NCBI GenBank assembly: GCA_033782935.1
Contig: JAWQEG010000007.1
Span: 143,851-207,850 of the forward strand
Reading direction: 5' to 3'
DNA length: 64,000 nt
Source of the DNA: Petrolisthes cinctipes
Lineage: Eukaryota > Arthropoda > Malacostraca > Decapoda > Porcellanidae
How positions within the stretch are numbered: the first letter of the stretch is position 1; the number at the start of each line of letters is the position of its first letter. The position numbers were made by a program, and so were the translations under genes. Below, piece by piece: positions 28,003-63,535 of the stretch. The notes under the pieces are model-generated. The model worked only from the letters and a program-made list of their open reading frames with translations, was not told where the DNA came from and made no database searches.

Positions 28003-31000
28003 GTGAGTCAAGGCTCACCCCACACCTCTGTCATTACATCCACACACCATGACAAATGAATTAACTCTGCCTAACATATATACATATATAATGTAACGCA
28101 TACAAACTGGTGCATGACAATGATGTATGTGTGCAACATTGGTGACGATTGATGGGTAAAAATTACTGTTTGTTAACATAAAATTAAAAAGGGCGTACTT
28201 AGTGAAAAACTACAGACCAGAAAACGAGACGGAGAAGTGACGAAACGGAAATACATCTATATATCATTTCTAATACAGTAGAGTTATCAACCACTGGAAT
28301 CAGGTACAGTCAAGGTCAATAGTCCTGCAACACCTTCGAATATGAAAACTGTAAATCATGAGCTTGAATCTGCAGACCTGTCACCTTTTAGATATTCAAG
28401 TAGGCTACTGACTACTGTTGGTTGGAACAACCCCCCCCCCCCTCTCTCTCTCTCTCATAAAAGTCAACATTTCTCTTTCATCCCCTCGTTTTCTTCTTCA
28501 GTACTATTATGCATTCCCATTTGCTGTCATTGCACTTTCCCTTGCCATTCATGTCATCAAATATTGTAGCATTGTCTCAGTTCCTTCTAGGTGCTATTGT
28601 ATGAGACATATTCACCACTATTGTCTTGTGGGGATAATGTCTCGGCATTTCCCGTCTGCTACAATAATAACTCTTCGTCATGTGGGATGATGACGCTCTG
28701 TCTGTTATTAGTGAGAAAATTAATTCAAGACAGAAAGTTTTATTAGGGATCCTAAGCTCTCGAATGTCACAGCTGTTCTTACTGCTGCTACATTATATTG
28801 TTCTTCTGACAAGACTGGCTAACCATATAATAAATGTGAAAGAGGGAAACTTGCAGTGGTACTTGTTACTAATACAAAGGAATGCGCTTTACCTATTTAA
28901 AATGATTATCAGCAGGTGTACAGGTAGGGATAAATAGTGTTCATCACCATCCTCTTCTACTGATGAAACTGTAGCCTACGGGTGCAGCTAGAAGGTCCAT
29001 CCAATATCTACCTTTATTATTCCTTTATGTTTGGTCATTTACAACTTTATCATCTTATGTGTTGTACTTTTCATTTGAACATAAACCTTTATCTCTTTTG
29101 ACTGAAACAAACTAAGATAATTAATTAGTACTGTAACTGGGAATTACATAGAGTACAGTATTTGTCTTTTCTTGTGTAATATGACAGTGTACAGTATGTG
29201 GTCTGTCCAGAAAGTGTCCAAACACTTGATATTTAATTCAACTGGCCTACCTATAGTATAGGGTTATGGCACTTATTTCCACTTTAGTCCTCTTCATAGC
29301 ACTCTGTTTGGGACCATGCATACACATCCCAGTGTACCTTCCGATTTCAAAACAGTCAATAAAGTTTTCTTTTAGGATGCTTGTCAGCTGCCATAGGGTA
29401 GAGTATTTTGAAGGCCTCTAAGGTATTATTGGCCCAGATAGGTTATTGGTACAGTACCTAAAATAATAAAGCATTAAATGGCTGGATATTCTTCAGGCAG
29501 ACTGCTTATATAGTTTTCCGTTTCATTTTGCAATTTACATTTTATGCAGAAACTGTTCAACCTTGTTATTTTGAACTCACCAACTGAGGCAGCATTTTGA
29601 CTTTGTACCCCTTCTATGCATGGGACCTCAGTTTTATGCATGATAATTACGTTTACAAGTATTATGATATGTGCACTTTTTCAGAGGGACATTTGTGAAA
29701 GAGAGGATGGTTTTCTGGGTTGGTGTCACTTCAGAGAAAGTTACTGTAACCAAGAGGGAAGCCAGCCAGCCTCCACCACCTCCTACCACCACCACCACCA
29801 CCACCACCACCCCAGCTCCAACCACCCAGTCTCCTTCTGTAAGCTCAGAGCCAAAGGCAGTGAATGCTGGTGATACTGTGATAAGTGTGGTTGATGCACC
29901 TAGTGCTGTAGCTGAGAATGGCATCAATGTGGCTAGTACAGTTGATAATAGTGATTTCACGCCTACTATAGTCGAAGAGTTTTCACTTTCCTCTCCTCCC
30001 TCACCTACTGTAGTCTCTCCACCTTCCCTTTCTACCACCTCGTCACCTTCCCCCACCACTACTAGTAGTACACAGAGTAGCGCATCAAGCCCAGTGCAGT
30101 CTGAAACCACCGCTCAACCAAAAGGGTCCACCACACGCCGCAAGTTTGGTATACTCAACCGTTTGAGGACAACTGCAGCCCCCACCACTTCCACCACCAC
30201 CACAACCTCCACCACTCCAGCGTATAGAGTTCCCGATGAAGATTTGCCCCCAGTTAGTAGCCAACCAGATGAGAGATGAGTTTTTACCAGTATTCTTGTG
30301 TGTTTGCTTTATTCACAAATTATTCAAGTCTTGTTTTGCTGTACTGTGAACACAGATATATATATTTTGTGGTTGAGGAAGTATGTTAGTAGAAGTTGTT
30401 GTTGTAGCACAAAATCATATTCCCCTTAAGTATGAAGATGTTTTAGATTTCATTCTTCATGCCACACTGGATGATTTTCTAGTTAAGTGAATCTCCCTGT
30501 ACTGAGGGGCAGGAAGCCCTTTACTGCAGAAGGTGCCTCCTAATGTGAACACAGTTATTGGGCAGTAAACAGAGTGATATATGGAGCACCATCATACTGA
30601 AGGGGTCAAAAGTATATTAGCAAAGAATATTTGACATTCACTAATCAAACATTAGGTACAAATAATGAGGAGGAATATTATAAACATTTAGTTTAGACGG
30701 CTATACTTGTACACCACACCATTGAATAACTAACTTTAAGCATAAGATAAAAACTAATATTTAAAAGTATATTATTAACATATAGTATTATATTTGAATA
30801 ATAAATCATATGATACTAACAAAAAATCTGAGTAAAGAATATACACATAAAGTGGGTTAGTAAGGTTGATAAGTTACTTATAAGATAATTTTCTCCTTAT
30901 AATCCTCTGAGTTAAGTAATTTTTGTAACAGGTTAATAATGTATTGGAGAAGCATTTTCATTTTAAGCAGCACATGTGATCAACTTGAACCATAAACTCA

Positions 31001-45412: not shown

Positions 45413-46280
45413 CATAATAATTTAGTTAACAGCGATAACATGTTTATTAAGGGGAGATTCTTTTGATGGTGATTTGAAAGGTCTCTCCTCCGAACTATGT
45501 CACGAAACAGATCCCCCATTAGTAGTATAATTAAGGTCGTCTGCTTTCGAGCATAGTTTGGAGAAATCAGTAGCCCTCCAATTTACCACAAAGATAATCC
45601 CCCCTTAATTAAGAGCTGCTCTGATCGAAACAACAGGCCATAACAAACTTTAAAGGTACCTTGACCAGAAAGGAGGCCCCTAGACTCCCTGGTCCAGTAA
45701 GCTCTGGTCCCATCTTCATGGGATTTGCTTCGGTAGCCTAGGCCTACAGGGCCAGCCCCTCGTATTGCTAGCGGTGATGTAAGCAGTACTTTAAGGGTTA
45801 TGGCGCCCCTTTGTACCTGAGCCACTCCTTATCCAATCTTTAACTGTCCCTCCTTTCCTTCTCTTTCCTTCGTGCTTCCTGTTCCTCCACTTCACTCTAT
45901 CTCCTCCCTCATGGTATAGAGGTGCATGATTCTCTTCCGTTCGTGCTTGCTGTCCTACCTTCCTCGTCTTACCGTCCCCACAGGGTCTTCCAGGCCTAGG
46001 GAGGTCTTCTTTCATCCCCAGTCTTGAAGCTTCAACAACTGCATGCACGTGTCTCCTTCAGGTAGTGAGCGCCCGTCCTAGGATCGATGCCAGGCCGCCC
46101 CCAGACTTCCCCCACCTGGAGCTAAAACTGAAGAAACTGCGACTGGAGAGGGACCGTCAGGGAAAGATCTGCCAGGACAACATCAAACTGGTTCACCGCA
46201 TGGCCATCATTATGAGGAGCAAGAGGCTCGACAATATCAACATGGCGCCTCGGGGGTAGGCCTAGTAGTAGTAGTAGTAC

Positions 46281-46321
<41 letters not shown>

Positions 46322-46477
46322 CAAGTATTAGTAGTTACAGTTGTAGTAGTAGTAGTAGGTAGAAATAGTATTGGAATAGTAGAAATAGTAGTAGTAGTAG
46401 GTAGAGATAGTATTGGTAGTTGTTGTTATTGTATCGTAGTAGTAGTAGTAGTAGTAGGAATGCTAATGGTAGTTGTT

Positions 46478-46510
<33 letters not shown>

Positions 46511-48201
46511 ATGCTTGGTTGAGTTAATTAGTGTATAGGTTTTCTACCAATGTTATTTCATTACTGGATTACTGTATTGAATATGTAGACCGAGACTTAT
46601 TGATTCGTTGACTGAGTTTTTACTAACTTACTGGTGTGCTGGATTCAAATGTATTGTACTTTCTTATGATTGATTAATTAATGAATATATAAATGAATAA
46701 GTAGATGATTAGCTGTAGATAATGAAGGGACAGTTGTGTACAATATATACTTCTTTTTTTAATATGCCGGAATTCTGTTGTCACTGAACACGTTGCCAGA
46801 AATGTATGGAATAAAATAGATATACACTTTTTCTGTCATATTAAACTACAGTGGAAATGATGGCTATGATTTTTTTATGGACGAGAATATACGATAGTCA
46901 GATCTGAATTCCCCCAATAGACCTTTCGAACCCCGAAGACGATCTCGACCCCCAACCCTGCCACCTTGTCCTGGGTCAGAGGAGTTGGCTGAGGGGCGGG
47001 GCGAGGTCAGGCCGAAGTCACTCCTGGAGCAGGTCACGTTCGAGGCTGAGAGGCGCATCATTCCACCACCACCAGGGAAGAAGATTCAGGTGAGGAGTGA
47101 AATGAATTAAGCAGTTAGTCATGGTGTGGTTATTAAGGATTCCCCTTCTCTTTGGAAAAATGTCAACATCTGCTATTTTATCTTATACTTGTCTTAAATC
47201 GAATGACTTCCGTTAGTAATTAGGAGGATAATAGTATGCTTTTGGTACATTATAGCGCCTTTATTCATTCCTCCAATATAAAATGCTAGAAACAGGACCG
47301 TGCAGATTGACAAAAATAATAGTGGCCTGTTGTTTAAGGGGAGATTCTCTTGTTGACAAATTAGAAGGCTATTGATACCTCCTAAGTATGCTACAAAACA
47401 GACGCCCTTAATTATACTAATCTGTTTTTTGGTATAGTTTAGAGGAATCAGAGACCTTCAAATTCACCAACAAAAGAATCACCCATTAATTAGAATAGTT
47501 TGGAGGAATATATATAAATTGTTCCAGATTTACCAATTAACACTACATTACTTCCTCCTTCTAAATTAATTAACCTTATGGACCTTCACCTCCCTTTGGC
47601 ACATACACAGCACCGGGCTCCAGCAGGCGTGTGTCGCGTCCCTCGTGTTGGTCCTCCTCCTCCTCCTCCACGCAGTCCACCCCTCCCCAGCAGCAGACCT
47701 CGAACCAGGCACCACCACCACCACCGAGGCCTTCCATCATCCCCTCCGTCACCTTCTCGCACACCCATCTTTGATATACTGGATGTGGACTCAGAAGTTG
47801 CAGGTGGCCGGGAAGAATCACCTGAGCCCTCCAGTTCGGCTGTTGGTGACGACGATGGTGATGGCGGCGGTGGCGACAGGTCAGAAATGGCGGGGGAAGA
47901 CGTAAGTAGGCTAGAGGTGGAGGAAGATATTATGAGCAGGTCAGACAAGGAGGAAGGAGGAAAGTTAAGTGTGTCAGGAGTGGAGGGAGATGATGTAAGC
48001 AGACCAACAGGGGAGGCGGGAGGTGTGAGCAAGTCAACAGCAAAGGTGGCGGGAGGAGAGTTGAGGAGGTCGGTGAAGGAGACGAAGGAGGAGGAGGAGG
48101 CCGAGGAATCTGACTCTGATGCTCACGTTTCGTCAGTGTTGTTGACTGGTCACCCGGACATAACCATTAGCGAACCCAGCGATGATGAATTCTATACATA
48201 G
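44794..48201 (+). CDS. CFAP97/Hemingway-type ciliary protein, four exons
   Basis: Exons 44794-44865, 46062-46255, 46921-47089 and 47611-48201 join in phase to give 341 residues. Exon 2 holds the family core: IDARPPPDFPHLELKLKKL, a charged helix, then QDNIKLVHRMAIIMRSKRLD, matching the CFAP97 (KIAA1430) pattern of a K-P-P motif, a basic coiled helix with N-x-x-L, and a short I-M-R-x-x-x-x-V/L-D end. Exon 3 is basic and Pro-rich; exon 4 has Pro and His runs then an acidic Ser/Glu/Asp tail ending EPSDDEFYT. Family members act in axonemes of motile cilia and flagella (Drosophila Hemingway is needed in sperm and chordotonal cilia). Start is the first ATG downstream of the X-box. Whether this is CFAP97 or CFAP97D is not settled. 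Confidence 0.78.
44881..45022. mobile_element. Palindromic TTAA MITE at the CFAP97-like exon 1 splice donor
   Basis: ACTGATTCCTCCAAACTATG mirrors GGCATAGTTTAGAGAAATCA; right end AGATAATCTCCCTTTAA. The left end is truncated, about 16 bp after the exon 1 donor. Confidence 0.8.
45055..45280. repeat. Interspersed repeat (SINE-like), copy 1
   Basis: AATGGTCTACCAAGTGACT followed by GTGATTGCAA and AGTTACGTAGACTTAC matches 63170-63335 in the same order. Origin unknown. Confidence 0.65.
45447..45609. mobile_element. Palindromic TTAA MITE, subfamily A, in CFAP97-like intron 1
   Basis: Starts ATTAAGGGGAGATTCTTTTG and ends TAATCCCCCCTTAAT. Second copy in the same intron. Confidence 0.85.
45783..46025. 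repeat. Interspersed repeat copy 2, ending before CFAP97-like exon 2
   Basis: Has ACAGGGTCTTCCAGGCCTAG and TTCGTGCTTGCTGTCCT like the copy above. It stops about 36 bp before the exon 2 acceptor. Confidence 0.6.
46062..46255 (+). CDS. CFAP97-like exon 2 with the family domain
   Basis: Acceptor CTCCTTCAG; donor GGGG|GTAGGC leaving phase 2. It encodes the recognisable domain and is GC-richer than its surroundings. The intron just upstream ends in an interspersed repeat stopping about 36 bp before the acceptor; the intron downstream starts with an (AGT)n array within 10 bp of the donor. Confidence 0.82.
46263..46510. repeat. (AGT)n array in CFAP97-like intron 2
   Basis: Interrupted AGT triplets beginning 8 bp after the exon 2 donor and running about 250 bp. 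Confidence 0.93.
46921..47089 (+). CDS. CFAP97-like exon 3
   Basis: Acceptor CCAATAG, donor CAG|GTGAGG. Encodes GPFEPRRRSRPPTLPPCPGS, then a stretch ending PPPPGKKIQ. Codon 1 is completed from exon 2. No known domain; basic and Pro-rich. Confidence 0.72.
47229..47562. mobile_element. Subfamily B MITE interrupted by another MITE
   Basis: The left part (47229-47334) has TTTGGTACATTATAGCGCCT and AACAGGACCGTGCAGATTGA; the right part resumes at 47490 with TTAGAATAGTTTGGAGGAAT and CCAGATTTACCAATTAAC. Together they make one B element split by the insertion at 47335-47489. Confidence 0.78.
47335..47489. mobile_element. Subfamily A MITE nested in a B MITE
   Basis: Begins TTTAAGGGGAGATTCTCTTG and ends GAATCACCCATTAA, full length, inside the 3' half of the B copy. 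The host sequence resumes with TTAGAATAG, so the junctions share TTA/TTAA. Confidence 0.82.
47611..48201 (+). CDS. CFAP97-like exon 4, acidic tail and stop
   Basis: Acceptor ACACAG in phase 0. Starts HRAPAGVCRVPRVG, then Pro/His-rich sequence, IFDILDVDSEV, and a long Ser/Glu/Asp/Gly tail ending at TAG 48199-48201. Low complexity makes homology of this exon uncertain, but the 196-codon frame is open through G+C-rich sequence and joins in phase. Confidence 0.75.
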   Translation, partial: HRAPAGVCRVPRVGPPPPPPRSPPLPSSRPRTRHHHHHRGLPSSPPSPSRTPIFDILDVDSEVAGGREESPEPSSSAVGDDDGDGGGGDRSEMAGEDVSRLEVEEDIMSRSDKEEGGKLSVSGVEGDDVSRPTGEAGGVSKSTAKVAGGELRRSVKETKEEEEAEESDSDAHVSSVLLTGHPDITISEPSDDEFYT

Positions 48202-50403: not shown

Positions 50404-50571
50404 TCATCTGTGCTTCCTCATCTGTTGTTTGATCCAGGGTAGATAATAGGTAATGCGAGTATAGACGTCTGGGAATCCTGGTTTAGCACATCCTGATCCA
50501 AATGAGGTGATGCCAGCCAGATACCAGCGGCCATCCTTCATATTACACTGTAGTGGACCTCCAGAGTCACC
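50404..50571 (-). CDS. Protease terminal exon: catalytic Ser and stop
   Basis: Encodes [40 protein letters not shown] and [15 protein letters not shown], then TGA. Contains the oxyanion-hole GDSGG, the Cys pairs, and Asp in P-D-V-Y-T at position 226. The only copy of this segment in the window, so both A and A' must use it. Confidence 0.92.
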
Positions 50572-53500
50572 CTGTCGAAAGTAAGTAACATAGAGTAAGT
50601 AAGTAATGCCTCTGTTATGTAATTATTATATTTTCATCTGACCTAGGTTGACTGTGTTTATTCCATGCATCTCTGTTATGTATTATATGGCCATATTCAA
50701 GAACATTGATGGTGTTGACGATGGTGTGGTACCGGTACAATGACTCCATAGACACACTACAGAGCCATCATACCGTTACCACATCATTGTATGCACCATG
50801 ATTGTTCTTGACTATGGCCCATATTTTCATCTGACCTAAGATCTGGATCTCGTTCTCATTTAACATACACACACATCAGAAGTTTTGTACACTCATTTTA
50901 GCGTAACACTAGTTTTCACTATTTTTAACCTGTCTTTCACATGCTGTTTTATGTGTTAGCATTTAAAATGTAAGTACGTGTGCCAAGAGCAAAGTCAGAT
51001 TGTTAGGCTAAGCAAATAAGGTATTAAAATTTTTGTTGCTAATTACCATGATATTTTCAAAGTGTGATGGTAAATATTGTGCTGTACACTTTAATTTTAT
51101 TTTAGTGGTTCCTCTGTGTTGTCTGAACAGCTTTATTGTTAATAGGTTTACTGACTATAAAGTATAAATGTTATTTGTTATTAACTATAAGGCCGTTATA
51201 CATGCACAATAATATATATACAAAGTATGAGGTGCTGTAAAAGAATGTGGAGGTTTTTCACTTCTAAACTTTGAACAGTCATAGCACAATATACGAGCAA
51301 CAATAAATACAGTTTATAAATCATTAGCTTATAATTCTTGGTTTAATTGCTGTTTATATGGAAAGCGGACATGTGTACCGATAATGATTTCCTTGGTACA
51401 GATTGTTACCACAATCACAATGGCCCAAGCAGTTAGTCCCATACCCACCTGAAATGATTATTAATATTGAATGCAACTAGGCTATGCTCACAGACCACCA
51501 TGTTTTTGTGAAGCTGTGATGGTGCTGTTACTAAAGTGTGCAATATATATGTTTTAACTGGAAATTTGTTGATGGTTACCAGACTACTGGTATAGGCCTA
51601 TCTGGAAATGTTTTGCTGTGCCCCAATGGCCCAATGCATCTGGGACAAAGTATAGCTAAAAGTAAAAACACCATGGTCATATAATTATGAAATGTATGGT
51701 ATGTGTAATGTATACAGTATATTGAAACAGTTAGAAATGTTTCCATATACTATTCACCAAACTACGATTATTAGGTACCGTACAAAGGAAAAAGAGAAAG
51801 GCAGCACAATGGGCCCCATGTAAATCCATTCCCACTTTGAAGTCCACAATCTCAGCTCTCTAAAGACACAAGTACCTGTACTGTGTCATGTACGTACAGT
51901 GCATACCAAAACAAAATTTCATCATAATTTGGCCTAGTGTAGGAAGTAATTCTGTGAATTAAGAGTCCCTATTACAGTACAGTATTACTATTAACCCTTG
52001 TTTGATTGTTAAATTGCATACTTTTTGCATGAGCTACTGTAGTGTGGTGGATAAGTACTCACTATACAGGTGCCTTGACCCTGACCCTGGGTGTAGCCAG
52101 CACAGAGGTGGTATTGCTTGACTGGTATACTGTGCATCATGCCGTACATCTTGACACAGTGACTGTTGTTTACCACTGGCACTGTCACCTCTTTCAGCTT
52201 CGCCTCCAATCGGGCACCATGAACCCTCATGCCCCAGCCTGTGGCCACACACTTAATGCCCAGGAAGGTCTCATTCAGGTGGGGTGGAGCATCAGGCAGG
52301 CAGATGGGACGGATGTAGTCTGAGATGGTTACGTCTTCTCGTAACCGCATCATGGCTGTAACAACACACATGCCACTATATACGCACACACACATACACA
52401 CGTTGATACTTGGTCCTTGGGTTGTCAATCATAACCTTAGTTGGATATTTTGCCGACTGCGACGCTCTTTCCTTCTGGCAACAGCATTTGTGAGTTTCCA
52501 GTGCATTGCTAGTGCTCCTGTGTACAGTATTTATGGCACAGAAAGGCCACCTTTGGCAACCTCTGCTCAATGTTAAGCTACTTCCTACCTTATGTCAAAA
52601 TTCACCTTCCTATGGGGTGAGTCATACGAGAGAGAGATCACGAGGTACAGTGTGTGGGAATTAATACCGTATATGGCTTTAAAGCCATGGCATCCACACT
52701 TGAAGCCATGCTAACTCTTACAACCTTCACACATGTCACATATATAACTCTGGAACCGGGAGCCAGACTGGACTGGATATTGCTTTATTCTGCAAGTTAG
52801 AGCATTTAATTGTACCTTGTTTTAAATTTTGCTATGACGCACCACATTTTGTTTTTCTCTGGGTTATTAACATACAAACCCTCATGCTTACAGATATTGT
52901 ATCCTTATTTATTATTGGGTAGGTTTTCTATACTTCTGGTTATTCATGCATTTTCTTTACATGCCACTTATTAGGGCAGTTTTTTTTAATACAGTTATTT
53001 GGTATCTTGGTCTGTAAACTCAGTGGTAATAAAATAGACTACCGTATGATTCCTTTCTTGGTCAGACTCGAATAGGGCCTAAGGTCTTTATTTATCATAG
53101 GTAGAATACTTATCAAGTTTCATATTAAACTATTTGTGGATGCTCAATATCATTCAGTGCTAAGGCATATAAGTATAATTATAACTTCCATATTTAGGTT
53201 TTCCCTTCAAGTACACCCAGGCAATTACCACTTTAGTTTAGTGTTTGTCCTTGTGCATGGTGAGTCTCATTAGAATACCTAACTGTAGGTGATAACTACT
53301 AATATATTCAAGTGTGTAAAATGTGTATGAGATGTTAAATTCTGTACAGTGCTATACTGTACTGTATATTAATGCATGCGAAGCAAGCGGTTTGATTTGA
53401 AGCATATGGTCCTTAGAAAAGAAATCTATATGATCAGTAGGGTACATTTTTTCAAGGTGATTTCAACTGCAACAATTATTTTATATTCAATAATTTTACA

Positions 53501-56500
53501 CATTACCCTATTTAGTTGATACTGTATTTGTTATATTAATTGTACAGTTTCGGTATTTGTAAGTTACAATACAGTATGTTATGTTTTAAGGAAATAGTTG
53601 CACTGTCAGATAGATTTCTTGGTGTTAGTAAAGAAATGGCCATATATCCCTCAGACAGCTTCACTTTCCTTCTAACACATTTCCCTCACATATCTCTCCC
53701 CTTTCACTCCTCCCTTTGCCTCTTACCACTCCTTTCCACCACAACTTACAACACAAGTGCCTGCTGACCCGTCCATCACACCTGCACACACGTGTGAATT
53801 GTCAACCTGCACATGCCCATATTGCTTGATGTTGTATGCCCTTGAACAAACCACCAAAGGCATCACAGGAACTCTGATCTCTTGCAGGCGGGGCTGAAGG
53901 CGATTTGAACCAAAAGGGGAGCTCAGATCCCGGGCAGAAGGGTCCGAGTAGTGGATGGTGATGTTTGAATTTTGAGCAGGATGATATGAATCCTGGGTGG
54001 TGGGATTCAAATCCCGGGCAGTAGGGTTCGAATCCTTTGGGTGATAGTTGGTTCCCCATCCAGTAGCAGCACAGATGTGGCCCTCGAAGGTGTAAGTGCG
54101 TAGAGCAGGGGACTTCGGTAGGCAGATGGGTGTGAGATGGGTGGAGGTGTTGTGCCCCAGTGGCTGGAGCTTGAGGAGAGCTGGTGGGACAAGGGACAGG
54201 GGAAAGGAAGTATGGTGGAATTAAGAGTTGGTGAAGGGAGTCAGTAAAGGAGGAAAGTGAAAGAGTTGTTGGTGGAGTTAGGAGATGGAAGTGGATGAAA
54301 AAAAAAAGATTTTGATGGAAAGAGCAAGAATGAAGAGGAGAATAGAAAAATGTCAGCAGAAATGGGGCGTAGGAATTAATACTTGAATGTTTGTAAAAAT
54401 TTTACTACAGAGTCTGTTTGGGTGCAGTAAATGCACACTTATTCTCATATCTACACATTAATACACACTGGTAAATGAACATTTCTTGACTCCTGCATTC
54501 ATGTTAATACTGTATTCGTTTTTAGCTCTTATTATTGTTTTGTGTTGTGCATAGATACATTCATACTTTACATTTGCAAAAACATTTGTACTGTAATCTT
54601 TATGAACTACGGACAGTTAGGGACTTTTGCATGCATGCTCGACACCAATTTTTAATAACCCTAAAATGAATGGCCTGTAAACTCAAAGGTGATGTTTGGG
54701 TATTTTACTGTGTATTCATGCAACTGACAAACAGGTTTCACTTGTCCAATATCTCATTATAATTTACTCTTCAGTTTGGTACGTACATGTACTTTGATGG
54801 CATCAAAGTAGCTAAAAAAATCTGTTGATAATTACTCCCTGGATTGGAAATAACAATGCCCCACTGGGTTTATTATGCAGTGCTTCCCACAGCACATTCT
54901 TTAGATTTCATTAATACTACAATTTCTGATTGTTACATTTTAAAGGAGGTGTAGAGTATACAGTACAATTCGGCACTCCTCATGTGAGTTGTTTGCCAAC
55001 AACATTAGCCCACTACATCAAAGTTTTGCTGATGCATTCACAGCATTAGTTGCTTGCAGACAAGTACAGTACAATATCTATGCTCAACAGAAACACACAA
55101 TTTCATGCATTTTTGTTAGAAGAACAAATGAGGAAGGAAGGTTGGACCACAGCTTGCTTACAAATATGTTAGGTACACTGGCTCAAAAAAGTATCGCGCA
55201 GGTGGGGTCCGATGGTTCTGTAAATGATCGCTACAGCTCATGATAAACAAGCTCGTTTTCAGTAGCCATCGTCTTAGGTGTCAGAATGTTTCACGAGGGA
55301 AATGCGCGATACTTTTTTGATCGAGTGTACATATATGTAGATGAATACAGTCATCATCCAAAGTTCTGCACCCCCTGCTTGTAGAGAACATTGAAGCTAA
55401 GGTTTGATTTAGTAAGGCCGAGTAATGCAGGATGTCTGATTTTACTTTAGTGAAGCATGATGTTGGGGTTGAAAAGATTAGTTTGAATCATGGTAGCAAG
55501 GGTGGTACTGAAATTATAAACTTTGACTGTGCATGATATGAGACCTTTAATAAAGGTGAAGTATAGTGCACTTGTGAAGTAATGTTTCTTTTTTTTCCAT
55601 AATATGATCTCTACTCGGAATGTTTTTAACCTGAAACTCTTTATATATTGACTTGCTTTAAGGTTAGGAAGGGATGACCTGTTTGTGATACTGATTTTGT
55701 ATCTGCTTGTGGGTGAGAGTCTGTTGAACTATATTTTTCTATGTCCCAGAATAGAAACAACATGACACTGTTTTTCATCTAGATACCCAATCACAATTAG
55801 GTGTACAGTATACTGTAATAGTCAAGAGAAAAAAACCTTACACTGATTATGCCAACCAAAATTTTGAACCACAGACTAGCTTGGAGGGAATTTAGCATGT
55901 TAACCACAAACACCCACAATGCATTGGTACACGTGCCACTTCTAGTACAGTACTTCTAACATGAGGAATGTGAAATACTTGCATAAATCAGTAAGCAGTA
56001 CTATATCCTCTTCATGCATGTTGGATGCTGGGGGAAAGAGTAAGTAAAGAACTGTATTTGATTGTTTTCTTAAGTTGCAGGCCGTTTTCCTCACTATGGT
56101 TGGTGAAACTTATGTTTCTTTGAGTAATCTCAAAGCAAACTCATTGTTATGATATACTAAGTGTAAGTTAGATATCGTACCTAGCTGGCAGTGAAGAGAT
56201 TATAGTATATTTTGAGTGATATAACCAATGTTGCTTTTCAAACCCAGGTAGCTTTGATTGATGTATATTCCTTCCCTGGCAGAACATCAGGTAATATATA
56301 TTGGTGCATAATGCCATAATGGCCTGGAGATAACTGGGATCAATCACTCTTGTGCACTTCCGGTTCCCGAGTTATGGCTCGTGTTTTCATGGTGTGATCT
56401 TAGTTGCCACTACGGTATGTCATTTCATAAGGATGCACATGAATTCTGCTGGTATGTTTTGAGTGCTGGTATTCTATTTCAGCAATATGTTGTACAGTAT

Positions 56501-59500
56501 TGAAGCTGTTATACTAGCAGGGAAGAGTTTTGTTTATGATGCGATTAAAATTTGCTTACCACTAATTTCCGGCATTTGACATGCTTCCTTTTGTGTGCGT
56601 GTGCTTTTTCCAAGGATGCAGAGTGACACGTACATAGCTATTTGACAGTGACTAAAGAAGTACTGTATATATCAGACTAATGCCAGACAATTTTTCTTGT
56701 CAATGGGAAGCACTTCTGATGTTCGAATGATAGAGACCATTTTGATTTCTGGGTAGCCTACAGAGAAGAATGTGCTTCCGAAATATTATGTTTGGACAAA
56801 TCCCAAATGATAAAGCGTCAAAAGATGAATGGCATCATGTTTCTGAATGTTCGTAAACTTATTTTGAGACATTGGACTTTGCTGAGGAGTTTTGGCAGGT
56901 GGAACCTAGTCATTCCGCAGTTTGCAAATGATCATTATTATTCAGTAGATTGCTTACATCGCTTCCTGGGATGAGGGGTTAAAGGACCTGAGAAGTCGTC
57001 AAACTTTGTAAGAGCATCATATATCACCCTGAAATAATAATTAAGAGTTTTTTTTTTTTTTTTAGACAAAATGAAAAGAGCATTTTTTTTTTTAGTGTAT
57101 ATGGTACATTACTATAGTACATAAAGTCTTTGGTAAAGGTGGTGTCACATAAGTCATTTAGATAATTAACAAAGGTTTGAAAATAGTGTAAGAACAACTT
57201 GAACTTTACTGTCAATCAGATTTAAGCTTGAAATAGTTATGACATAGCTCAAGAAAGAGGAGTTAGAATATACCAGAAAAACAAGTGGCTTGTCATGTAG
57301 GCCAAATTTATAAAAGTAGTGCAAGAAAGTGACTGGAATACCTGTACTGTACCAATTACATGAAGTGGCACGACTGTAAAGAATATCATGTGTTGCTCTT
57401 TTTAAATCACCAGTGGTGTTTATGTAGTATATTAATAGACAGTTCACGTAAATGTGAAAACCAACTGTAACCACTAGATATATATGCAGTCTAACTCATA
57501 CATTTGCTGTTCAGTGAAAAAGCAGACATTTTGTGAATAGTAAAGGTGAAACCAGCAATGCAGTACAGGTACAGGTAATAGTTATGGTTTTATTCACAAA
57601 AGAAAATGTGAAGGAAAGTGTGAAATTATAATTAGAAATGACCCCAGTAATTCTAAATAATCTACACCTGATACGTACTTGAACCTGAGGAATATATACA
57701 GTATATAAGCTTAGCTGGTTTTCAATCTTAGTTGCTCCAAGATCTGAGTGTCCAGGTGGTAGGATATGGTCACATTTACAATATTCAAAGTAATGGTGTC
57801 CTTTTTTTGGTTAAAAAATAACCATAAATGGACACCATAACTTTGAACTTGTATAAGCAAGGTACCGGTATCCCGATATGGATTTGAATCTTTGACCAAT
57901 AGAATGTGACACGGGCTGAATTATTTCAAGTATTGTTCAGGTCCAAGTAAGTAGTTAGTAATGCTCTTGCATCATACTCTGGTTTCTTGGGGTTCTGTGC
58001 CTGAGTAGAGTAACATGTTCAGTGCCTTCACATAGCATTTTGTGTATATTTGGTTGTAAGAAGAAAGAAGACTGCAGTTGTGGTTGGTAAAGTGATAGTA
58101 ATGTGAAGGGAGTTGTCTTACCAATGTCGTTCTGATAGTCGTTGAAGTCTTGGTGTGTGTGGACAGTGTGGACTCCAAGCACGACTTCTCGCCCGGTAGA
58201 CTGCGAGCGGTCGTGGTCAGCCAGAACCACCTGCCACACCGCTGCCGTGTTGGTAAAGCTGAAGGCCTTACTGCAACACAACTCACACCCTTAACTGTCT
58301 GGCCCAGGAGCCCTGTCTCACTCTTCGAGCAGCTATGTGTTCTACACATTTGCCGTCTTAGTAGTGTCTGGTCGCTTGTCACTTACATAAATGATCACTT
58401 GAAAAGAACATATACTAAAGGCGAGGGATATGTATATTTACTGTAAATATATTGGAAAAAATGCTCAGCATTAAACTAGTGTGGTGCTTTATGAAAATAA
58501 TAAGTTTTCCTCTTGATGAAGAGATTACAGGTTATCAGGCATCATGTCCTTTCATAATGATTCCACTAGTCATTGTCCTTATTCTATTTTCTGTTTTTTC
58601 ATCCTAAGCATTTGTTAGACTGTGTGTTTGTTACCCTTCATAATGCTAGATTTTGATTATTGGGAACTTGGTGTTGTAGTATAATAATAGTGGTTTGTGT
58701 GAATTGGTGTATATTGTATGAAGAATGTAGACATTCATGCGTGTGCTGAAATGATTAGAAGGTACTCTGGGGGTCAGGAAGTTGTCACATTTCTCACGTT
58801 GATAACCATAAAGGCTGGTAAAATTACGGACATGAAAGCAGTGGTCTTTCCCATCCTTCCTTTCTTCCTTGTGGCAGTATCATTATCAATGAGGTTCATA
58901 GATACAGTATTAACATACAATGCTCTTTAAAAATAGGAAGTCTGTTGCAGAAGTATATTGGAATATTATAATAATTTTTTATTCTGGATGTAGACAAAGA
59001 TATTCCATTGATAATTAATCGTACGCAGGGTAAAAGTCACTGCACACCTGCTTACCTATGTCGTGTTTATAGTTCTTGAATCTCTCGTGGACGATTATTT
59101 TCTGTACCTTGACCACTGCACCTTCCTCCTCTCCAACTCCTGTACCCTTCCCCCCTCCACTTTCTGCCCCTCCCCCTCCCCTCCTCCGTGGTTCCCCCCG
59201 CCCCACCCTTAGGAGGTGCTCCCTCCTCCCCACCACAGCTGTCCAGAGAGGTGGGTAGGGAAGGGAGAAGAGTGGGCTGGAAGGGCAGATATATTCAAGA
59301 CACCAGTGGATATGCAGTAAACTTGGCATGTGTTAAACTAAACAAAAATACCTAGTCCAACTTACCAGCAAAAAGTGCCACCTTCAGAAGGCATTCTATT
59401 ACCAATGTTTGTAATTTAAAAGCAAAGAGTTATTGTGCATGACTACGTGCATGTCATTTCAACCGTAAAATGACTGAATACAAATTAATGTAGCCTGTTG

Positions 59501-61501
59501 CTTAGGTATGGAAGCCATATTTCTTATTTCTAGTAATGTACAAGTATGTAAAATATGTCTGAAGTATTATTTTCATAGGTCGGGAGCCTTTTTCAGTGAA
59601 TCCAATAAAAAAACTTAGAAAGAATGAACACCACAATCCAGATAAGTTACCCCACACGACGGTCGTGCTTTGGGAACCCATTAGGAATGACAGTGAATAC
59701 AGTTGTAGATATTTTGTTTCATTTCAATATAAAAGCAGCATCATAACAGCCACTCAGAGAGTTTTTGTATCTTACTAAACTAGCAATATGCACTTTCATG
59801 AAAGGATGTCCATTATTACTTGGGAAACAATGTATATAATTCAGTGTCAGATGTTTAATAAACAGGTTGTCCACAAGTTATCTGAACAAAGTTCATTAAA
59901 GGGGATCTGTTTTGATAATTTATGAAAACCAGTACTTGGTTCTATTGAATTTATCAGATTTATCAGCACAATATTTTGTAATTATTACATGTATTATTCC
60001 TTTGCTTCCCGACCAGTATAATTCTGCATTTTCGGTAGTGATTATTTTGAAACCTTTCTCTTGGAGAATCTAGTGTCAGGGGTTAGGATAGGAGAGGTTT
60101 TGATGGTGTGGTAAGTAAGCTGATACTTGGGCAGGATCTGATCAGGAAAGGAAGGATTGGTAGCCACAATGTAACTCAACTCCAGAATGGAATACAACAA
60201 TATAGGTAAATTTTCTGCAGCCACCATGGTTACCAATTCTATATTTATTCGATGATTTAGTAAAATTAAATGTGAGAATAAAACTTGAAATACGGATATG
60301 AGCAGCAGTTCAAACAAATAAGCAGGTAAAGAAAACATTGGTAAGTATGAAAATAATACAAATGAATGTTAATGTGGAACTATTGACAGTGATGTGAAGG
60401 GTAGTTTCGTTACTGGGCGGTGAAGATATTTCATTGGATGTATTGAGGTCGCAGCGATAGGTCATGGTAGAGGAAGTCGATGTGAGTGTAATAGCAAGAA
60501 TACTATTATGCTGTTCTTTAATGAGTTGTAAATGTCTTGGTAAGGAGATGGGAAGGAACCAGGATAGGAAAGCTTCTATGATATCAGTAAAAAGTGATGG
60601 AAGGAAATGAAAAAGAGCACCCTAGCATGTAAAATTGAAGATGAAAGCTAGCCAAATAGTAAAATTTTATTGGATGACTTACTTGTTAATGCAATGTGCT
60701 GCAGTGACTACCCAGCGCTTTGCCACCAGTACACCCCCACACCAATGGCCTATTCTACCCCAGCGTGGGTGTAGCAACTGTAATGACACCTGAGAGAGTG
60801 GGGAGATTCAGAGGGGAAGGATTCGTGGCTTACACAGTTTGGCATTTTTCAACACTGAACTAACAACACCATGTATATATGCCTAACTAACACGTTTATA
60901 ACCACTTGACCAATTAAGGGGAGATTTTCTTTTTGGTACATAGGAGGGTTACTGATTCCTCCAAACTAAGTCACGAAACAACAGATCTCCTATTAGTAAC
61001 ATTGAGGTGATTTGTTTCTTGAGATAGTTTGGAGGAATTAGTAGCTCTCCGTTATACCACAAAGAGGTTCTGATGTGTAGCACTAGAAATCTCACCTGCC
61101 AAGGCCAAGCACCAGGTTTGCTCTCCTTCCCTCCCACAATTCGTCCTGTTGACCTTTCGTCGAACACCATCATCCTATTGTTGGGCCGTAGGCGCTTGGT
61201 GCCATTCGTACTCTCTCTTTCGGGATTCTCCTGGTTAGAATCGGCCAGCAAACACAAATTTGACATATTAAGCATTATAACAAGTCACAGGAAAATTTTC
61301 ACAGGCTTTAGCCACCACTCGAGGCGCGTCGGGCTAAAGATATATAGATAATCATGGATGCTAATAATGTCGCAGATGTATAGTGAATTACCTGGTGGTG
61401 ATGGTGCTGGTGTGGTTGTGGAAGGATGGTACTGGGGATGAGATCAAGGTTGGTGGGTACTCGGGGTTGTCTTTGTCTTGCCAGCAGGCTAATTCCACAC
61501 T
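50404..61501 (-). CDS. Secreted S1 serine protease with two duplicated internal exons, 5' partial
   Basis: Exons in transcript order: E 61501-61392, D 61230-61096, C 60789-60683, then B' 59276-59056 or B 58270-58122, then A' 54180-53750 or A 52355-52063, then last 50571-50404. Activation site [19 protein letters not shown] (D); catalytic His in VVTAAHC (C); Asp in QNDIA or KHDIA (B/B'); Ser in GDSGGPL (last exon). Cysteines fit all five chymotrypsin-type pairs, including a propeptide Cys (CGIS, exon E) to the PICLP Cys. The B+A catalytic domain is about 253 residues, normal for S1; B'+A' gives about 323. Residue 189 is Gly and 226 is Asp by motif alignment, as in crab collagenolytic proteases rather than trypsins. 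Signal peptide and earlier pro-region were not found. Substrate is unknown. Confidence 0.88.
50690..50819. mobile_element. Palindromic insertion with about 60-bp arms
   Basis: Left arm begins GGCCATATTCAAGAACAT; the right arm reversed begins GGCCATAGTCAAGAACAA, and similarity continues to the centre. An 18-bp direct repeat, ATATTTTCATCTGACCTA, occurs at about 50629 and again just after the right arm, so the whole unit sits between direct repeats. Confidence 0.65.
52063..52355 (-). CDS. Protease exon A (alternative 122-191 exon, compact)
   Basis: 293 bp = 2 + 97 codons, exit phase 0. Encodes [60 protein letters not shown] and GTCI. No insertion, so length equals the family norm. Joins the last exon as GTCI|GDSGGPL. 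Confidence 0.88.
53750..54180 (-). CDS. Protease exon A' (alternative 122-191 exon, long)
   Basis: 431 bp = 2 + 143 codons, exit phase 0. Encodes [20 protein letters not shown], then CAATGWGTN, a 45-residue insertion with repeated D-x-N-P-T-A-R-D/Q-D units, then [23 protein letters not shown] and GTCV. Five cysteines match exon A one for one. Donor GTT|GTAAGT, acceptor CCCACCAG. The frame is fully open and splice sites are good, so it is not an obvious relic. Confidence 0.8.
54181..58121 (-). other. Protease intron between exons B and A'
   Basis: A 3.9-kb noncoding stretch on the minus strand. Holds a Tc1/mariner-type MITE at 55176-55327 and poly-T runs near 57050 and 57086. No exon found. 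Confidence 0.6.
55176..55327. mobile_element. Tc1/mariner-type MITE, 152 bp
   Basis: Terminal inverted repeats of 25 bp, starting CACTGGCTCAAAAAAGTATC and, at the other end, CACTCGATCAAAAAAGTATC, with 3 mismatches. Flanked by TA on each side (55174-55175, 55328-55329), the standard Tc1/mariner target duplication. Too short to code for a transposase; noncoding centre. Confidence 0.82.
58122..58270 (-). CDS. Protease exon B (alternative Asp exon, compact)
   Basis: 149 bp = 1 + 49 codons + 1. Encodes [40 protein letters not shown] and DFNDYQNDI with the catalytic Asp. Acceptor TGTTGCAG, donor TTG|GTAAGA. It lies 786 bp downstream of B' and keeps its phases. Confidence 0.85.
59056..59276 (-). 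CDS. Protease exon B' (alternative Asp exon, long)
   Basis: 221 bp = 1 + 73 codons + 1. Encodes [20 protein letters not shown], a 30-residue Gly/Glu/Arg-rich loop, then [20 protein letters not shown]. The W-T-A-V-V-G-x-x-E-H and K-x-I-V-H-E-x-F stretches are typical of S1. Ends with the catalytic Asp and phase 1. Same phases as exon B, so either can follow exon C. Confidence 0.78.
60683..60789 (-). CDS. Protease exon C: catalytic His
   Basis: Acceptor CTCTCAG gives [20 protein letters not shown], then [15 protein letters not shown], exit phase 2. A second AG 12 bp further on would drop VSLQ; the first is preferred because PWQVSLQ matches the family. Confidence 0.88.
60914..61070. mobile_element. 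Palindromic TTAA MITE near protease exon D donor
   Basis: Starts TTAAGGGGAGATTTTCTTTT; GATTCCTCCAAACTAAGTCA mirrors TTGAGATAGTTTGGAGGAAT. The exon-side end has lost its CCCCTTAA and stops about 25 bp from the donor at 61095. Confidence 0.82.
61096..61230 (-). CDS. Protease exon D: activation site
   Basis: Encodes [19 protein letters not shown], then [22 protein letters not shown]. Cleavage after Arg would release the I-V-G-G N-terminus, the standard zymogen activation of S1 proteases. Phase 0 both sides. Confidence 0.88.
61392..61501 (-). CDS. Protease exon E: propeptide with Cys
   Basis: Acceptor TGTTACAG, donor CCACCAG|GTAATT. Frame fixed by phase 0 join to exon [20 protein letters not shown], then a His-rich end (QPHQHHHHQ). 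The first Cys is the expected partner of the catalytic-domain Cys in PICLP, which supports this frame over the longer open frame in the same place. Confidence 0.65.
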
Positions 61502-63408: not shown

Positions 63409-63535
63409 AAGGGGGTAACACATTATTGGTACATTAGAGTGCTTTAATTCCTCCAAAAGTATGTCAGGAAACAGGACTAGATGAGCAAATATAATGGTGG
63501 TCTGTTGCTTGAAATAGTTTGGAGGAGTCAATTAT
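63409..63535. mobile_element. Palindromic TTAA MITE, subfamily B, right end missing
   Basis: Starts TTAAGGGGGTAACACATTAT; ATTCCTCCAAAAGTATGTCA mirrors GAAATAGTTTGGAGGAGTCA. Confidence 0.75.

What the first reader, a model, noticed from the sequence alone, without database searches (positions are those of the whole stretch)
50404..61501. Protease gene with two tandem pairs of interchangeable catalytic-domain exons
Seen: order E-D-C-B'-B-A'-A-last on the minus strand. B' (1+73 codons+1) and B (1+49+1) have identical phases; A' (2+143) and A (2+97) also match. Each pair encodes the same structural segment, each B copy carries the catalytic Asp, each A copy the same five Cys, and all splice sites look good. 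The single His exon and single Ser exon must be shared. Using both members of a pair would duplicate a segment and break the fold, so mutually exclusive splicing is predicted, giving up to four enzymes. Mutually exclusive exons within a chymotrypsin-fold catalytic core, in two consecutive pairs, are unusual as far as I know.
Basis: partly seen in the sequence, partly recalled or inferred. Interest (0 to 1): 0.9.

Follow-up and report, generated by a model that had tools for sequence, protein, structure and literature searches.

The report
Protease gene with swappable catalytic exons
A porcelain-crab gene for a chymotrypsin-like enzyme carries two alternative versions of each of two pieces of its catalytic core, and relatives in shrimps, lobsters and other malacostracans are annotated with all four combinations, so one gene probably makes up to four enzymes.

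Summary
Confirmed and strengthened. The minus strand carries one chymotrypsin-fold (S1) protease gene, exons E-D-C(His)-B'-B-A'-A-last(Ser). All four B x A combinations stay in frame; the four irregular splicings tested (two doublings, two skips) hit stops. The window scan found no second His or Ser exon. Sequence and contig length point to Petrolisthes cinctipes.

Of 22 malacostracan relatives fetched, 14 are regular, one B-type plus one A-type exon plus the Ser exon: BA 3, B'A 3, BA' 3, B'A' 5. Eight are irregular; 4 of these hold two copies of one kind. An amphipod model has both B copies and a stomatopod model both A copies, so both duplications look older than decapods. B, A and A' form clades; B' falls among the single exons of insects and Daphnia.

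Limits: isoforms are annotation models whose RNA support I could not see; splicing in this species, its regulation and any difference in activity are inferred. Seven searches of an open-licence library listed no paper that I recognised as describing it.

The parts
61392..61501 (-). exon E, 2 + 36 codons, prodomain segment [13 protein letters not shown]... with the conserved Cys
   Evidence: 100% in P0015; CG-x-S...HRQPR conserved in relatives
61096..61230 (-). exon D, 45 codons, activation site RIVGG
60683..60789 (-). exon C, catalytic His (AAHC), single
   Evidence: only His exon found in the window
59056..59276 (-). exon B', first copy of the Asp102 segment; Gly/Arg/Glu-rich insertion; resembles the single exon of insects and Daphnia
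58122..58270 (-). exon B, second copy of the Asp102 segment, derived type
53750..54180 (-). exon A', first copy of the segment from after Asp102 to residue 192; five Cys; about 46-codon insertion partly of 21-25 nt repeats
   Evidence: single match in the genome
52063..52355 (-). exon A, second copy of that segment; five Cys; resembles the single exon of Daphnia and Artemia
50404..50571 (-). last exon, catalytic Ser (GDSGGP), Asp226, stop; single

Best explanation
One secreted chymotrypsin-like zymogen gene whose pre-mRNA takes one of two B exons (about residues 61-102, with the catalytic Asp) and one of two A exons (about residues 103-192, autolysis and 170s loops, five Cys, residue 189), between a shared His exon and a shared Ser exon. 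Reading frame enforces the choice: the four variable exons are 2 mod 3, so doubling or skipping one of them gives stops in the cases tested. The choices at B and A are not obligatorily linked, since all four combinations occur in relatives. Residue 189 (Gly, in both A types) and 216/226 (Gly/Asp, in the shared last exon) are constant, so I infer that the P1 preference is kept and that the swap changes surface loops and extended subsites. Shown: anatomy, frames, homology, annotated isoforms in relatives. Inferred: splicing in this species, nonsense-mediated removal of faulty forms, altered substrate or inhibitor recognition.
For: Anatomy and frames. 14 of 22 malacostracan proteins have exactly one B-type and one A-type exon plus the Ser exon: BA 3 (Eriocheir, Penaeus vannamei X2, Scylla), B'A 3 (P. 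indicus X3, Palaemon X4, Panulirus X5), BA' 3 (Homarus X2, P. chinensis X1, Panulirus X7), B'A' 5 (Macrobrachium X2, Palaemon X2, Cherax, Panulirus X4, Hyalella). Isoforms of Panulirus (3), Palaemon (2) and Macrobrachium (2) are identical before the swapped exons and, except in the irregular Macrobrachium X3, after them. Pfam Trypsin scores of the four window products: BA 214.5, B'A 201.7, BA' 185.4, B'A' 174.4 bits, cut-off 20.6. Models of the two mixed Panulirus isoforms (mean pLDDT 70.5 and 68.1) match S1 proteases (Foldseek best E 2.6e-21 and 1.2e-20, target TM 0.78 for both). Pocket residues Gly189, Gly216, Asp226 (for BA; A' read by eye).
Against: No RNA was seen, for this species or the others; 'isoform X' entries are annotation models. 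Four of 22 malacostracan models hold two copies of one kind: Panulirus X10 P0125 (B'+B, no A), Trinorchestia P0123 (B'+B, A), P. manimaculis P0121 (B' and part of B, A'), Oratosquilla P0023 (A'+A); P0125 even regains frame at the Ser exon. The only annotated protein of this gene here, P0015, is B-A' and runs into the intron. No BA isoform of Panulirus was among the 120 rows listed in each of three searches. B' and A' are less conserved than B and A, which also fits relaxed constraint. No splicing-control element was found.
Confidence: 0.83

Rival explanations
1. B' and A' are decaying exon copies in this species: still open, but rarely used, with B-A as the working enzyme.
For: B' and A' are the faster-changing types (mean identity among decapods B' 52%, A' 59%; B 71%, A 77%, with different species in each set); both carry low-complexity or repeat insertions in this species; the two brachyurans seen are BA only.
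Against: Both are fully open with GT-AG borders and right phase, keep the Asp and five Cys, and are 97-98% identical in P. manimaculis. Both types occur in annotated isoforms of several families of decapods and in peracarid or stomatopod models.
Confidence: 0.1
2. Remains of two tandem or fused paralogous genes: B' and A' belong to a second gene.
For: Tandem protease genes are common; exon types of a tandem gene array are a known false positive in exon-based prediction (PMC3228551, passages).
Against: Order is B'-B-A'-A, not B'-A'-B-A; no second His or Ser exon in the window or on C7 in the B-A search; the same exons are used within single annotated genes elsewhere.
Confidence: 0.03
3. Loose alternative splicing: several forms, including double inclusions, are made and only some are functional, without regulated exclusion.
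For: 4 of 22 malacostracan models hold two copies of one kind, one of them a numbered isoform (P0125).
Against: 14 of 22 are regular. Three of the four doubled models carry no isoform number and look like gene-prediction joins. [quoted passage not shown]
Confidence: 0.12

Closest known systems
Clusters of mutually exclusive exons (e.g. arthropod muscle myosin heavy chain, Dscam)
   Same: Neighbouring homologous internal exons, same phases, same structural segment; exactly one used (definition in PMC3228551 and PMC3923563, passages).
   Different: Here two consecutive clusters lie inside one enzyme's catalytic core; the members differ by 24 and 46 codons in this species, beyond the length tolerance (20 aa) used in one test of that method.
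[quoted passage not shown]
   Same: One gene, two S1 protease products differing in the protease part (PMC3701661, passages).
   Different: There the two products differ in the whole protease domain and the 15 residues before it; here His and Ser exons are shared and only inner pieces change, in combination.
Single-copy arthropod orthologue-like proteases (Daphnia 'trypsin-1', Artemia, insect 'chymotrypsin-like elastase 2A')
   Same: Same architecture and close sequence.
   Different: One B-type and one A-type segment; the three hymenopteran isoform or model pairs compared differ elsewhere, not by a B or A swap.

Membership tests
S1A chymotrypsin-like serine protease | His, Asp, Ser triad and activation site in one product | tested here: met
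   RIVGG, AAHC, DIA, GDSGGP in all four products; Pfam Trypsin 174-214 bits, cut-off 20.6
S1A chymotrypsin-like serine protease | Proteolytic activity | not testable with these tools
   needs expression and assay
Mutually exclusive exon cluster | Homologous neighbouring internal exons | tested here: met
   B vs B' 27% and A vs A' 37% in this species on aligned positions; each matches its own type in other species far better
Mutually exclusive exon cluster | Same phases and reading frame | tested here: met
Mutually exclusive exon cluster | Similar length | tested here: inconclusive
   74 vs 50 and 144 vs 98 residues here; 49 vs 50 and about 100 vs 98-100 in relatives without the insertions
Mutually exclusive exon cluster | Exactly one member per transcript | tested here: inconclusive
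   14 of 22 malacostracan models regular, 4 with two copies of one kind, 4 otherwise irregular; no reads seen
Separate tandem paralogue | Own His and Ser exons for B'/A' | tested here: not met

The most novel reading that the evidence does not exclude
A combinatorial 2 x 2 catalytic-core system, kept since before stomatopods, amphipods and decapods parted, in which independently chosen B and A modules give four enzymes of like P1 preference but different loops, with the B' and A' modules evolving fast to track substrates or inhibitors, and the choice set by tissue or physiological state.
Probability: 0.35. Interest if true: 0.85.

Novelty: new variant of a known kind. Interest (0 to 1): 0.72.

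Why it matters
Proteases usually gain new specificity by gene duplication. Here inner pieces of one catalytic domain, one with a triad residue, appear to be exchanged by splicing while the other two triad residues are shared. If real, it gives a natural set of chimeric proteases to test which segments set specificity and inhibition, and it warns that crab and shrimp catalogues list one gene's products under several unrelated automatic names (tryptase-like, chymotrypsinogen B-like, venom protease-like).

Tried and rejected
Third copies: B and A profiles found nothing further in the window (next best E 2.9 and 0.71; these profiles contained the window's own exons, so their scores for B', B, A', A are inflated).

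Splicing mechanism: the B'-B and A'-A introns are 785 and 1394 nt, too long for steric exclusion under 50 nt; donors are GTAAG/GTGAG type, so no AT-AC or obvious minor-class site (U12 sites not scanned for). Inverted repeats: 7 pairs in the gene, short ones around A and A' (21 nt, 81%), no control run, not taken as evidence. No Rfam match at gathering score in 50404-61501.

Age by tree: holding all malacostracan copies together was not rejected (p-AU 0.358 for B without the row labelled 'Tigriopus?'; 0.062 for A without Strigamia and Hyalella). So the trees do not say whether the duplications arose on the malacostracan stem or earlier. Tachypleus and Chamberlinius could not be cut by my pattern and were left out. 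'Tigriopus?' is my guess from a locus code.

Insect isoforms: Vespa, Frieseomelitta and Dufourea pairs differ outside B/A.

Literature: looked for the finding (listings seen; passages of PMC12758981 and PMC9021376). Neither passage set describes this gene; PMC9021376 counts one mutually exclusive event in Portunus without naming it in what I saw. Most subscription papers are not held.

Full report
What is there. On the minus strand, 61501 to 50404, lies one S1 protease gene: E, D (RIVGG), C (His), B', B, A', A, last (Ser). The upstream signal-peptide exon was not identified. The window is C7:143851-207850 of its assembly; P0015, annotated as Petrolisthes cinctipes Pcinc_000095, is listed with a contig of 207850 bases and is 100% identical over E, D, C, B and A'. 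So I infer that species and that the window ends with the contig.

Frame logic. B', B, A', A are 221, 149, 431 and 293 nt, all 2 mod 3. The four regular products are open from exon D to the stop. Four irregular ones were tested (B'+B+A, B+A'+A, skipping B before A', skipping B before A), and all meet stops. One form not tested there, B'+B without A, regains frame at the last exon and exists as a Panulirus model (P0125).

One gene, not two. His and Ser profiles made from 16 other proteins each found one convincing exon in the window's six frames; the weak second Ser match (E 0.014) has no GDSGG. The B-A product matches C7 only at D, C, B, A and last; the nearest other Ser exons of the genome are 58-61% identical. 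A' DNA matches only itself (the tool scores only best candidates). The B'-A' product search was sent seven times and never answered.

Relatives. Three protein searches reported 1643, 1861 and 2253 matches and listed 120 each. I fetched 24, of which 22 are malacostracan (15 species). Typed by similarity, alignment and tree, 14 are regular: BA 3, B'A 3, BA' 3, B'A' 5. For Hyalella the BLAST margin between A' and A is small (63 against 56 bits) and for P. indicus that between B' and B (48 against 42); the tree decides both. Eight are irregular: P0004 (extra sequence, by eye with a piece like B', then B-A), P0015 (B-A', runs into the intron), P0021 (B'-A, then out of frame), P0023 (B', A'+A, no Ser exon), P0036 (A and last only), P0121 (B' and part of B, A', no Ser exon), P0123 (B'+B, A), P0125 (B'+B, last). 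Where two copies stand in one model the order is B' before B and A' before A, as here.

Same gene elsewhere. Together with Penaeus, Homarus and Cherax this fits one widespread gene. Three insect pairs compared do not swap these segments.

History. B rows form a clade (100/99) together with one long non-malacostracan row; A (100/99) and A' (100/98) form clades; B' rows do not form one clade but lie among the single exons of insects, Daphnia and Strigamia. A lies nearer to Daphnia (45-48%) than A' does (38-42%), and B' (39-59%) nearer than B (33-39%); for Periplaneta A and A' do not differ. So B' looks ancestral in its pair, and A, less surely, in its own. Both B copies occur in the amphipod model P0123 and both A copies in the stomatopod model P0023. 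That places the duplications before those splits; absolute ages are recalled as several hundred million years. The trees cannot say whether they arose within Malacostraca.

Conservation. Among decapods the mean identity is B 71%, A 77%, B' 52%, A' 59% (10, 15, 10 and 15 pairs; species sets differ). All 17 distinct malacostracan B segments end in Asp-Ile, but they were cut there, so this only says a cut was possible. 19 of 20 A segments have five Cys; the other (P0021) was cut short.

Structure and mechanism. All four window products score as Trypsin (174-214 bits). Models of the two mixed Panulirus isoforms, of moderate confidence, match S1 structures. The S1 pocket reads Gly189, Gly216, Asp226, a type called chymotrypsin-like in insects, where Asp226 may add some basic preference as in crab collagenases (PMC11172050, passages). 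Residue 189 is Gly in A and A', and 216 and 226 lie in the shared exon, so I expect a kept P1 preference with changed loops. Faulty frames would go to nonsense-mediated decay (inferred). What chooses the exon is unknown.

Known or new. Mutually exclusive exons and S1 proteases are both familiar; the human survey and database papers looked at do not mention proteases in the text searched (passages). MASP1/3 swaps a whole protease domain. Two consecutive exchangeable pairs inside one catalytic core, with His and Ser shared, I found in none of the listings of seven searches, in a library without most subscription papers. I file it as a new variant of a known kind.

Noticed in passing
window 60928-61065: 54-nt inverted repeat (81%, 30 nt apart) in the D-C intron, with a similar-looking stretch near 63460-63530 by eye; perhaps a small transposon.
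   Followed up: no
window 55170-55333: 31-nt inverted repeat, 90% complementary, 102 nt apart, in the B-A' intron.
   Followed up: no
window 47518-48198, 46082-46519, 29668-30276, + strand: Long open stretches with low-complexity parts; no Pfam match up to E 0.1.
   Followed up: partly
G000 contig C5890:7254-30195: Five protease segments with the same score spaced about 5.6 kb apart, a recent tandem array or an assembly artefact.
   Followed up: no
P0122 and P0123 (amphipods): B' segments of 186-190 residues instead of about 49: very long insertions at the same place where P. cinctipes and Panulirus B' have shorter ones.
   Followed up: partly
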